Source: JBFLYE01 sp040756715 [NCBI: bacterium] | GTDB lineage: Bacteria; UBA9089; UBA9088 | NCBI GenBank assembly: GCA_040756715.1 | Contig: JBFLYE010000095.1 | Location: 3,098 to 11,559, forward strand | Direction: 5' to 3' | Length of the DNA stretch: 8,462 nt | Part shown: positions 1,549 to 8,326 of the stretch, in pieces | How the letters are laid out: each line of letters opens with the position of its first letter | Numbering within the stretch: position 1 is the first letter of the stretch | Notes under the pieces: model-generated | What the model was told of the DNA's origin: nothing | The model's input: only the letters and a program-made list of their open reading frames with translations | Databases searched by the model: none | Position numbers and translations under genes: made by a program

Positions 1549-1898
1549 TGGAGGTGGTGGGATTTGAACCCACGTCCAAAGGTATCACAAAAAAGGTATC
1601 TACCAGCATAGTCTATATTTTGTTCTCCCTCTTTAAATCTCCTATAGACAGGATATTCAAAGATGTAGCTTATTTTTATTTCGTTTTTTCAATTCTTAAG
1701 CAAGATTGAAAAAACTAGCCCCTTTTCCTGACATCCTTTAAAACCCAAGAGGCGAGGTTAGAAAGGATGTTGCTACTTTTAAGCAGCAAGTGCCAGATCG
1801 TAGTTGGCGCTTATTCTTTTGTCTATTTTTTAAAAAGAATAGACAAACTTTACTGGCAACCTTTCCTCTGATAGCCTCTGTCGAAACCAATCACCCCC
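1549..1898 (-). ncRNA. ssrA: Transfer-messenger RNA (tmRNA, trans-translation)
   Basis: tmRNA rescues stalled ribosomes by acting first as alanyl-tRNA and then as a short mRNA encoding a degradation tag. The 5' end GGGGGTG pairs with the 3' CACCTCC (one G-U) to form a 7-bp acceptor stem. The conserved GGTTTCGAC follows the 5' strand, and the T-arm GTGGG-TTCAAAT-CCCAC precedes the 3' strand. The discriminator is A. The next bases are GTA, so CCA is not encoded and must be added after transcription. Helix P2 can form from GCCAG and CTGGT. Inverted repeats at 1818-1827/1838-1847, 1731-1739/1762-1770 and 1684-1693/1705-1714 fit the pseudoknot domains. At 350 nt it has the usual one-piece size. 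The tag frame ends with codons for ALAA and TAA, as in other bacteria. Confidence 0.96.
1779..1808 (-). other. tmRNA tag reading frame (ANYDLALAA)
   Basis: Within ssrA the frame GCC AAC TAC GAT CTG GCA CTT GCT GCT TAA encodes ANYDLALAA. With the alanine carried by tmRNA the added tag would be AANYDLALAA, close in form to E. coli AANDENYALAA. The stop and the ALAA end are clear. I chose GCC as resume codon because 12 A-rich nucleotides separate it from the upstream hairpin ending in TAGAC and because alanine is a common first codon. An earlier resume codon in the same frame (for example AAA at 1818-1820, giving KRISANYDLALAA) cannot be excluded. Confidence 0.72.
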
Positions 1899-1990: not shown

Positions 1991-2914
1991 ATGAAAAATC
2001 TCCTTAATCTTCCTACAAATGAGCTTATCTGCCTTGCAAATTCTTTTAGAAAAGGGCTTCCCCTTGAGCTTTGTTCTATAATGAATGCAAAATCGGGAAT
2101 GTGTCCTGAGGATTGCAAATTCTGTGCCCAATCATCACATTATAAAACAGGGATTTTAAGCTATCCATTAAAAAGCAAAAATGAGATTTTAGAAAGGGCA
2201 GAATTTGCAAAATCTATTGGTGCAAAGAGATTTGCAATTGTTACATCTGGAAGCAAGCCAACGCATAAAGAGCTTGAGGCAATAGCAGATGCAATTTCAG
2301 AAATAAAAGGCATTTTATGTTGTGCTTCACTTGGAAGGCTTGATAAATCCAGCCTTTTAGCCTTAAAAGATGCAGGCTTAAAAAGATTTCACCATAACAT
2401 TGAGACATCAGAGAGGTTCTTTCCAAACATTGTAACCACATATCCATTCTCTGAGAAGATAAGGACAATAGAATATGCAAAAGAAGTAGGCCTTGAGGTC
2501 TGTTCCGGCTGTATCATTGGAATGGGAGAATCCTGGAAAGATAGACTTAACATTGCAAATTTATTAAAAAGCCTTGGAGTCAATTCCGTTCCAATAAATG
2601 TTTTGATTCCTATAAAAAATACGGCTTTTGAGAAAATTTCTCCCATATCACCAATAGATGTTATAAAAACAATTGCTATATTTAGGATAATCTTGCAAGA
2701 TAAAACGATAAAAATAGGAGCGGGAAGGGAAAATTTAGGTAGGGCTGAATTATTGGCATTTCTTGCAGGAGCAAATGGAATGATAATAGGAGGCTATTTA
2801 ACCATAAAGGGAAGGGAGATATCCGAAGACCAGCAGCTTATTTCAGAAATAAAATCCCTATTTAAAAATAAAGACCACAAAATATCTTGCAATATTTCTG
2901 GATTTCTTTTATAA
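1991..2914 (+). CDS. bioB: Biotin synthase (radical SAM), atypical [2Fe-2S] ligand set
   Basis: BioB inserts sulfur into dethiobiotin, the last step of biotin synthesis, using a SAM-bound [4Fe-4S] cluster and an auxiliary sulfur-donating cluster. The 307-residue protein has the radical-SAM motif CPEDCKFC (Cys38, 42, 45) followed by AQSSHY, FHHNIETS at 133-140, CSGCIIGMGE at 171-180, SVPINVL at 199-205 and GAGREN at 243-248. Aligned by eye to E. coli, Cys128, Cys188 and Arg260 correspond to Cys111, Cys171 and Arg246, but Cys97 is replaced by Ala82 (RFAIVTSG). Extra cysteines occur at 28, 110, 174 and 300. An ATG nine codons upstream at 1964 was not chosen because it lies between the -35 and -10 elements. 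No Shine-Dalgarno is present. It is the first gene of the operon; no other bio genes are in the window, so the dethiobiotin source is unknown. Confidence 0.92.
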   Translation: MKNLLNLPTNELICLANSFRKGLPLELCSIMNAKSGMCPEDCKFCAQSSHYKTGILSYPLKSKNEILERAEFAKSIGAKRFAIVTSGSKPTHKELEAIADAISEIKGILCCASLGRLDKSSLLALKDAGLKRFHHNIETSERFFPNIVTTYPFSEKIRTIEYAKEVGLEVCSGCIIGMGESWKDRLNIANLLKSLGVNSVPINVLIPIKNTAFEKISPISPIDVIKTIAIFRIILQDKTIKIGAGRENLGRAELLAFLAGANGMIIGGYLTIKGREISEDQQLISEIKSLFKNKDHKISCNISGFLL

Positions 2915-6400: not shown

Positions 6401-6658
6401 ATGAAAGAAATTAGATTTACACCCCATGCAAAGATGAAGTTTGAAATTTTAAAAAGGCATAATTTTGTTGTTTTGGAAGAAGAGGTGAAAGGGGTTATTT
6501 TGAAGCCTGAAAAAAGAGAAATTGGAAGAAAAGGAAGGGAAATTGCTCAGAAAACAATTAGCGAAAGACATATTTTAAGGGTTATTTATGAAGAAAAAGA
6601 TAGAGGAATAGAGGTTATCACCTTCTATCCTGCAAGGAGGGAGAGGTATGAAGATTAG
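6401..6658 (+). CDS. DUF4258 family protein, probable toxin-like partner
   Basis: The 85-residue protein resembles the DUF4258 family: an N-terminal FTPHAKMKFEILKRH (His8 and a basic helix), a central region with an EIGRKGREIAQK stretch, then HILRVIYEE and VITFYPARRERY near the C-terminus. This H...RVxYE...VITxYPxRxxRY layout is like small RelE/BrnT-type nucleases, and DUF4258 genes often sit next to a DUF2283 gene, as here. That suggests a type II toxin-antitoxin pair with the toxin first. No catalytic residue can be proved from sequence, and toxicity is inference. The gene has its own promoter, and its last 11 bases overlap the next gene. Confidence 0.75.
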   Translation: MKEIRFTPHAKMKFEILKRHNFVVLEEEVKGVILKPEKREIGRKGREIAQKTISERHILRVIYEEKDRGIEVITFYPARRERYED

Positions 6659-7051: not shown

Positions 7052-8326
7052 ATGAACAAGGAATACTTGAAGAATGTAATTATTGACCAACAAAAAGACA
7101 TTCTTGAGAAAATTATGAATACAAATGTCATATCCCGTGAAGGTGCGGATAGATGTGAAAGGTATATAAGATACCCGAATGTCTTGTTAATAACTGGGTT
7201 ACGAAGAGCGGGTAAGTCATTCTTTGCCAGCCAGCTTGTGGAAAACAAAAAATATGCATATTTAAACTTTGATGATGAAAGATTGATTGAATTTAATATC
7301 CAGGATTTTAATCTTATTCTGGAATGTTTTTATGAACTCTATCCGGATTTTGAGTATTTGTTATTTGACGAAATACAAAATGTAGGTGGCTGGGAACTCT
7401 TTGTTAGTAGATTAAGGGATAAATACAAAATAATTATCACTGGTTCAAACGCAAATCTATTAAGTAAAGAAATGGCGACCCATTTAACAGGAAGGTATAG
7501 TGATTTTGTCCTCTTTCCGATGAGTTTTAGAGAATACCTTGATTACAATAATGTTGGGATTAAAAGAATATCATCATATTCTACCACTGAGCGAAGTAAG
7601 ATTACTTCATTCTTTGACAGATATGTCAAGGAAAGTAGTATTTTTGATTATTATAAATTCGGTAAGGAATTTTTAAGAAATTTATGGGCTTCTGTAATTA
7701 TCAAGGATATCACTATTCGTTACAAGATAAAGTATCCTTCAGTGTTGGAGAAACTATCGGTTATGCTGATAAATTATTTTACTTCTAAAATTTCTATTAG
7801 TAATCTAACCAGAAATCTAAAAGTAAAAAGTCCAAATACAATGGCTGAATATATAAGGTATCTGGAAAACAGTTTTCTCGTTTTTAGCTTAAATAAATTT
7901 TCATATAAAATCAAGGAACAGTTAGCCACATTTAAAAAGATATATATTATGGACAATGGTTTTATTAATGCTATTCTCTTTAATTTCAGTGAAAACAGAG
8001 GAAAACTCCTGGAAAACATTGTGGCTATTGAATTGAAGCGCAGAAGCATAAGAGACGATTTTGAAATATTTTACTGGGATAATTACTATGTAGAATGTGA
8101 TTTTATAATAAAAAAGGGGAAACAAGTTATTTCTGCATATCAGGTATGTTCTGAACTAAATATCAATAATAAAGAAAGAGAGATTAGTGGATTAACTGCG
8201 GCAATGAAAGAATTTGGTTTAAAAAACGGCACGATTCTTACTTCTTCAACGGAAGATGAAATATCAATAAACAGTTCTAAAATACAAGTAACACCAGTAT
8301 GGAAATGGCTTTTGTCTGAATTTTAA
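7052..8326 (+). CDS. AAA-type ATPase with DUF4143-like C-terminal domain
   Basis: The 424-residue protein has an N-terminal P-loop domain with Walker A GLRRAGKS at 49-56, Walker B YLLFDE at 102-107, a sensor-like IIITGSN at 127-133 and HLTGRYSDF at 144-152, all typical of the large family of predicted ATPases with DUF4143. A helical, winged-helix-like middle follows (ISNLTRNLKVKSPNTMAEYIRYLENSFLVF, about 248-277). The C-terminal region LLENIVAIELKRR to VECDFIIKKGKQVISAYQVC (about 319-366) resembles the restriction-endonuclease-like fold of the family. The Q-V-C ending, where many members have E-V-K, suggests no nuclease activity. The GG-x-P loop usually found before the second helical region is not seen near 190-203. 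The cellular role of these proteins is unknown. A good Shine-Dalgarno (AAGGAG, 5-nt spacing) supports the start. It is accessory in character and probably horizontally acquired. Confidence 0.85.
   Translation: MNKEYLKNVIIDQQKDILEKIMNTNVISREGADRCERYIRYPNVLLITGLRRAGKSFFASQLVENKKYAYLNFDDERLIEFNIQDFNLILECFYELYPDFEYLLFDEIQNVGGWELFVSRLRDKYKIIITGSNANLLSKEMATHLTGRYSDFVLFPMSFREYLDYNNVGIKRISSYSTTERSKITSFFDRYVKESSIFDYYKFGKEFLRNLWASVIIKDITIRYKIKYPSVLEKLSVMLINYFTSKISISNLTRNLKVKSPNTMAEYIRYLENSFLVFSLNKFSYKIKEQLATFKKIYIMDNGFINAILFNFSENRGKLLENIVAIELKRRSIRDDFEIFYWDNYYVECDFIIKKGKQVISAYQVCSELNINNKEREISGLTAAMKEFGLKNGTILTSSTEDEISINSSKIQVTPVWKWLLSEF

What the first reader, a model, noticed from the sequence alone, without database searches (positions are those of the whole stretch)
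2231..2239. BioB lacks the conserved Cys97-type [2Fe-2S] ligand but has extra cysteines
The codon at 2234-2236 is GCA (Ala82) in RFAIVTSG, where E. coli has RFCMGAAWK and B. subtilis has FCIVASG. The other ligands (Cys111, Cys171, Arg246) are kept, and additional cysteines occur beside them (Cys110 in GILCCASLG, Cys174 in CSGCIIG). This could mean an alternative auxiliary cluster. BioB enzymes in anaerobes with a different auxiliary cluster ([4Fe-5S]) have been reported, and this protein may be related or a further variant. The alignment was done by eye from memory.
Basis: partly seen in the sequence, partly recalled or inferred. Interest (0 to 1): 0.6.

Follow-up and report, generated by a model that had tools for sequence, protein, structure and literature searches.

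The report
Biotin synthase with relocated cluster cysteine
The gene encodes a biotin synthase that lacks one classical iron-sulfur cysteine but carries another in its place, as the known oxygen-avoiding "type II" enzymes do; it is largely ordinary, apart from also lacking the fourth cysteine found in the two type II enzymes with solved structures.

Summary
In detail: codon 2234-2236 is GCA (Ala82), at the E. coli BioB Cys97 position, and no cysteine aligns there. The protein is a clear BioB (NCBIfam bioB 340 bits, cut-off 225). Its closest solved relatives are the V. parvula and B. obeum biotin synthases 8VDW and 8VCW, which I recall as the 2024 "type II" [4Fe-5S] enzymes and which have Ser at that position. 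So losing Cys97 is expected for this kind.

It sits at the E. coli Ser43 position, beside the [2Fe-2S] cluster. In 195 aligned BioBs, 133 lack the Cys97 equivalent and all 133 have Cys28.

One real deviation remains. Both solved type II enzymes have a fourth cysteine where this protein has Val148; 32 of 33 rows in its tree group share the gap, with no new cysteine common to them. The site is probably Cys28, Cys111, Cys171 and Arg246. Most likely it is a type II-like, sulfur-inserting biotin synthase whose auxiliary cluster rests on three cysteines. Cluster type is inferred, not shown. Low-to-moderate interest.

The parts
1991..2914 (+). bioB, biotin synthase, 307 aa from ATG 1991 (an upstream TTG at 1964 would give 316 aa)
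   Evidence: NCBIfam TIGR00433 bioB 340.4 bits, cut-off 225 (on the 316-aa frame); Pfam Radical_SAM and BATS; AlphaFold2 model pLDDT 87.9 matches 8vcw Z 40.0, 8vdw Z 38.5, 1r30 Z 38.0
2072..2074 (+). Cys28, column of E. coli Ser43; proposed auxiliary-cluster ligand in place of Cys97
   Evidence: Cys in 177 of 195 rows and in all 133 rows that lack the Cys97 equivalent; Cys in 8vcw and 8vdw, Ser in 1r30
2102..2125 (+). CX3CX2C (Cys38, Cys42, Cys45): radical SAM [4Fe-4S] site
   Evidence: Cys in 146 of 146 rows at each of the three positions
2234..2236 (+). Ala82 at the E. coli Cys97 column (the finding)
2318..2320 (+). Cys110, not conserved, unlikely ligand
   Evidence: Cys in 6 of 195 rows
2321..2323 (+). 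Cys111, E. coli Cys128 equivalent; proposed auxiliary ligand
   Evidence: Cys in 143 of 195, Asp or Glu in 41
2432..2434 (+). Val148 where 8vcw and 8vdw have Cys (E. coli Ile165 column, residue number counted by me)
   Evidence: Cys in 118 of 195 rows
2501..2503 (+). Cys171, E. coli Cys188 equivalent; proposed auxiliary ligand
   Evidence: Cys in 195 of 195 rows
2510..2512 (+). Cys174, lineage-restricted, unlikely ligand
   Evidence: Cys in 6 of 195 rows
2726..2728 (+). Arg246, E. coli Arg260 equivalent
   Evidence: Arg in 189 of 195 rows

Best explanation
The gene is a functional biotin synthase of the type II-like kind. A radical SAM [4Fe-4S] cluster at Cys38/Cys42/Cys45 cleaves SAM, and the 5'-deoxyadenosyl radical activates dethiobiotin. 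Sulfur comes from an auxiliary Fe-S cluster deep in the barrel, held by Cys28, Cys111 and Cys171 near Arg246. Cys28, on strand beta1, takes over from the missing Cys97 of strand beta2. Of the cluster types, a [4Fe-5S] cluster (three cysteines plus a sulfide on the fourth iron) fits best and is the form reported for type II enzymes. The family, the predicted fold and the residue columns are shown; the ligand roles, the cluster type and the activity are inferred. Confidence is about 0.9 for biotin synthase, 0.8 for Cys28/111/171 as auxiliary ligands and 0.6 for [4Fe-5S].
For: Best PDB matches by sequence are 8vdw (E 1.6e-69) and 8vcw (3.2e-63), ahead of E. coli 1r30 (8e-53); both have Ser at the Cys97 column. 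The model matches 8vcw best: Z 40.0, rmsd 1.6 over 290 residues. Beyond CX3CX2C, the only columns with Cys in both 8vcw and 8vdw (within the stretches printed) are window 28, 111, 148 and 171; the window has 28, 111 and 171. Across 195 rows, 18 lack Cys28, 133 lack Cys82 and none lacks both, against 12.3 expected if independent. Ser43, the E. [quoted passage not shown] In the model, residues 28, 82, 111 and 171 are each the third residue of strands 26-35, 80-86, 109-113 and 169-171, which suggests one layer. The genome also has bioF, bioD, bioA and birA matches over cut-off and no COX1 oxidase match, consistent with an anaerobe that makes biotin.
Against: Val148 replaces the fourth cysteine of the two solved type II enzymes, so the ligand set is not identical to theirs. 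By structure 8vdw (Z 38.5) and type I 1r30 (Z 38.0) are tied. No coordinates could be measured, so ligand distances are untested. The Cys28/Cys82 exclusion rests on few independent changes (5 and 10 on the tree): the independent-pairs test had only 4 supported pairs and no significance. The shuffle test for at least three C/D/E/H among five sites found 0 rows below three against a shuffle mean of 3.0, but 0 was also reached by chance. A further ligand is not excluded: column 26, two residues before Cys28, is Glu, His or Asp in 42 of 48 rows that have Cys28 and Cys111 but neither Cys82 nor Cys148, against about 42 percent of 62 rows with Cys148; the window has Glu26.
Confidence: 0.78

Rival explanations
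1. A third auxiliary-site type: Cys28, Cys111, Cys171 and Arg246 hold a [2Fe-2S] cluster, i.e. the type I ligand count (three Cys plus Arg) with Cys28 swapped for Cys97, so the enzyme sacrifices a [2Fe-2S] cluster as in E. coli.
For: The window has three candidate Cys plus Arg246, the same number as E. coli. The fourth cysteine of the solved type II enzymes is absent here and in 32 of 33 rows of the window's tree group, window included.
Against: By sequence the protein is nearer to 8vdw and 8vcw than to 1r30; by structure only 8vcw stands clear of 1r30. Cys148 changes state 13 times over the whole tree and is missing in 52 of 133 rows that have Cys28 and no Cys82, which suggests that it is dispensable rather than a switch of cluster type.
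Confidence: 0.2
2. One reading: Cys110, Cys111, Cys171 and Cys174 bind one novel cluster.
For: Cys174 recurs in two separate groups that each lack one of the usual site cysteines: window and L046 (no Cys148), and L124, L136, L139 (Asp at 111).
Against: Cys110 is absent in the same-genus protein and found in 6 of 195 rows; its column tolerates Pro and Arg. Cys174's column is Gly in 173 of 195 and otherwise small or hydrophobic; the sixth Cys174 row, L122, has all four type II cysteines. Alternation along the strands would put 110 and 174 on the other face from 111 and 171 (inference, not measured).
Confidence: 0.05
3. The protein has lost the auxiliary cluster and is a non-sulfurating radical SAM enzyme, or a degenerate bioB.
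For: The Cys97 equivalent and the fourth type II cysteine are both missing. Related folds such as HydE work without this cluster (recalled).
Against: Cys28, Cys111, Cys171 and Arg246 are all kept in the window's same-genus and same-family rows, the bioB score is well over cut-off, and the genome has bioA, bioD, bioF and birA matches but no other bioB over cut-off.
Confidence: 0.04

Closest known systems
Type II biotin synthase: B. obeum 8VCW and V. parvula 8VDW
   Same: No Cys at the Cys97 column; Cys at window columns 28, 111 and 171; Arg at 246; same fold (Z 40.0 and 38.5).
   Different: They have a fourth Cys at column 148, where the window has Val; the window has Cys110 and Cys174, which they lack. 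That these two structures are the [4Fe-5S] enzymes of Lachowicz et al. is recalled; the paper itself was not held.
Type I biotin synthase: E. coli BioB 1R30
   Same: CX3CX2C, Cys128, Cys188 and Arg260 equivalents; a non-Cys residue (Ile) at column 148, as in the window (Val).
   Different: Cys97 is replaced by Ala82 and Ser43 by Cys28.
Mycobacterial BsaP-dependent BioB
   Same: Another BioB with one of the auxiliary ligands missing (Cys128 to Ala, PMC11099021, passage).
   Different: It loses a different ligand, has Glu at the Ser43 position, and needs a helper protein; no BsaP search was done here.

Membership tests
Biotin synthase (BioB) | Score over the curated bioB cut-off, radical SAM and BATS domains | tested here: met
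   340.4 bits against 225; Pfam PF04055 and PF06968 over cut-off
Biotin synthase (BioB) | Converts dethiobiotin to biotin | not testable with these tools
   Needs an assay; pathway genes are present
Type II biotin synthase | No cysteine at the Cys97 position | tested here: met
   Ala82
Type II biotin synthase | Cysteines at columns 28, 111 and 171, shared by 8vcw and 8vdw | tested here: met
Type II biotin synthase | Fourth cysteine at column 148, shared by 8vcw and 8vdw (whether it defines the type is not known to me) | tested here: not met
   Val148; also not Cys in 77 of 195 rows, and in 52 of 133 rows with Cys28 and no Cys82
Type II biotin synthase | Auxiliary [4Fe-5S] cluster as sulfur source | not testable with these tools
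   Needs spectroscopy or a crystal structure
Type I biotin synthase | Cys97, Cys128, Cys188 and Arg260 bind [2Fe-2S] | tested here: not met
   The Cys97 equivalent is Ala82

The most novel reading that the evidence does not exclude
The window belongs to a third auxiliary-site group of biotin synthases, found in at least three phyla of the sample, in which three cysteines (28, 111, 171) and Arg246 hold the sulfur-donating cluster, in some relatives with an aspartate at the old Cys97 position and often with an acid or His two residues before Cys28. Its cluster could differ from both the E. coli [2Fe-2S] and the four-cysteine type II site and would show which type II cysteine is not needed.
Probability: 0.25. 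Interest if true: 0.45.

Novelty: new member of a known kind. Interest (0 to 1): 0.22.

Why it matters
It turns an apparent oddity into a readable rule: in these 195 rows every BioB without the Cys97 equivalent has a cysteine at the Ser43 position. The three-cysteine relatives are useful natural variants for asking which residues a [4Fe-5S] biotin synthase really needs, and how its sulfide is placed. More productive biotin synthases are also wanted for biotin production (PMC11089781, passage). As a discovery, the missing Cys97 itself is already explained by the type II enzymes.

Tried and rejected
Rejected: Cys110/111/171/174 as one cluster (see rivals). Rejected: sequencing error or frameshift at Ala82, because same-genus and same-family proteins also lack Cys there.

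Sought: a ligand that appears when Cys148 is lost (48 rows with Cys28 and Cys111, without Cys82 and Cys148, against 62 with Cys148). No Cys column is gained by the group as a whole; the largest gain is Cys at column 221 in 12 of 48, where the window has Pro. Acids or His do rise at some columns: 26 (Glu 29, His 7, Asp 6 of 48), 104 (Glu 24 of 48) and 237 (Asp 35 of 48). Column 104 is the last residue of a helix in the model and 237 lies between elements; column 26 starts the strand that bears Cys28 and is the one I cannot set aside.

Led nowhere: a test for dependence between loss of Cys111 and Cys148 (2 supported independent pairs). A single-clade test of 39 rows without Cys148 gave p-AU 0.242, which neither shows nor rejects a clade. 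The first tree (146 rows) had a 15-row clade at SH-aLRT 97 with 15 of 15 lacking Cys148. With 195 rows the window's nearest set without any Cys148 is only 3 rows; L196, which has Cys148, falls inside at 82; the 33-row node has SH-aLRT 94 with 32 of 33 lacking it, and inner and outer nodes are weak (16 to 87, and 31 for 40 rows). Synteny: of rho, nuoN, ids, ispH and the ATPase, none was found in the 8 loci tested (L005-L008, L046-L049), some of which are short.

Limits: the 195 rows are not a random sample. They are 191 sequences fetched as matches to the bioB family or to the window protein, plus the window and three PDB stretches; 165 matching frames were cut to 143 by removing duplicates, one of them the window's own. 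Of 174 genomes with a match and 94, not all matches were fetched (49 new loci). Literature searches listed no held paper in which I found the type II cluster ligands named. The primary paper is not held, so whether its survey already lists the three-cysteine group is unknown to me.

Full report
What is there. The window carries a complete bioB gene at 1991-2914 (+), 307 aa. It scores 340.4 bits on NCBIfam bioB against a cut-off of 225 and has the radical SAM and BATS domains. Around it lie rho (minus strand), a tmRNA gene (1549-1898, minus strand), and downstream a nuoN-like gene, a polyprenyl diphosphate synthase-like gene and ispH.

Why Cys97 is missing. The nearest solved proteins by sequence are two biotin synthases, 8vdw and 8vcw, before E. 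coli 1r30. The predicted structure (mean pLDDT 87.9) puts 8vcw (B. obeum) first at Z 40.0, with 8vdw (V. parvula, 38.5) and 1r30 (38.0) tied behind it. I recall 8vcw and 8vdw as the structures behind the 2024 report of type II biotin synthases with a [4Fe-5S] auxiliary cluster. That report is not held. [quoted passage not shown] Both solved enzymes have Ser at the Cys97 position. So the missing Cys97 is the type II condition.

Which residue replaces it. Outside CX3CX2C, the only columns where both 8vcw and 8vdw have Cys (within the printed stretches) are window 28, 111, 148 and 171. The window has 28, 111 and 171. Cys28 is at the position of E. [quoted passage not shown] I aligned 195 BioB rows (191 fetched, the window, three PDB stretches). 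The Cys97 column is not Cys in 133 rows and the Cys28 column is not Cys in 18; no row lacks both, where 12.3 would be expected if the two were independent. The 14 rows with His at column 28 all have Cys at column 82. The number of independent changes is small, so this is a strong pattern but not a significant phylogenetic test. In the model, residues 28, 82, 111 and 171 are each the third residue of their strand (strands 26-35, 80-86, 109-113, 169-171), which suggests one layer inside the barrel; distances were not measured.

Cys111 and Cys171 are the normal Cys128 and Cys188 equivalents. Cys110 is in 6 of 195 rows, is Val in the same-genus protein, and its column mostly holds Pro, Val, Leu, Ile or Arg. 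Cys174 is in 6 of 195 rows: window, L046, L122, L124, L136, L139. I take neither as a ligand.

What is still unusual. The window has Val148 where both solved type II enzymes have Cys. That column is Cys in 118 of 195 rows; it is not Cys in 52 of the 133 rows with Cys28 and no Cys82. In the 146-row tree the window falls in a 15-row clade (SH-aLRT 97), all 15 without Cys148, including two Fusobacteriaceae genomes (L005, L006). In the 195-row tree the comparable node has 33 rows (SH-aLRT 94), 32 without Cys148 and 14 with Asp at column 82; one row with Cys148 (L196) falls close to the window, most other nodes on the way are weak, and the test of a single clade is undecided. No new cysteine is common to the rows without Cys148. 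Column 26, two residues before Cys28, is Glu, His or Asp in 42 of 48 of them (Glu26 in the window) and could be a further ligand or only a neighbour. The auxiliary site here is most simply Cys28, Cys111, Cys171 and Arg246. A [4Fe-5S] cluster should need only three protein ligands plus the sulfide (inference from the 'ligated sulfide' wording, and from other [4Fe-5S] enzymes, where a hydrosulfide sits on the unique iron, PMC12647591, passages). A [2Fe-2S] cluster on the same residues cannot be excluded.

Context. The genome (1.55 Mb in 218 contigs, completeness 96) has bioA, bioD, bioF and birA matches over cut-off, one bioB over cut-off, and no COX1 match. This fits a biotin-making anaerobe; absence of COX1 alone does not prove anaerobic life.

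Verdict. The enzyme is best described as a type II-like biotin synthase with Cys28 in place of Cys97, belonging to a subset that lacks the fourth cysteine of the solved examples. It is a new member of a known kind, with a modest question left open about its cluster.

Noticed in passing
L062 and 13 of the loci between L172 and L194 (counts): 14 of 195 BioBs have Asp at the Cys97 position (RFD[IV]V.SG) together with Cys28, Cys111 and Cys171 and no Cys148. Asp could be a cluster ligand; this looks stranger than the window's Ala.
   Followed up: partly
alignment column 111 (E. coli Cys128), e.g. L019, L023, L110, L199-L216: Asp in 35 and Glu in 6 of 195 rows replace the Cys128 equivalent, often with Cys82 present.
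   Followed up: partly
alignment columns 26 and 221 in rows without Cys148: Glu, His or Asp at column 26 in 42 of 48 rows, and Cys at column 221 in 12 of 48, against about 42 percent and none of 62 rows with Cys148.
   Followed up: partly
window 1549-1898, minus strand: tmRNA gene with tag ANYDLALAA, between rho and bioB.
   Followed up: no
window 6401-6658: 85-aa open frame with no NCBIfam or Pfam match at E 0.001.
   Followed up: no
window 7052-8326: 424-aa AAA_14/DUF4143 ATPase.
   Followed up: no
G000 contigs C95, C213, C144, C3: The biotin genes bioB, bioF, bioA and bioD lie on four different contigs of this fragmented assembly, so no biotin operon is visible.
   Followed up: no
L031, L036 (Gln), L090, L209 (Lys), L037 (Ser, in a stretch with a gap): A few BioBs lack Arg at the Arg260 position in the alignment.
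   Followed up: no
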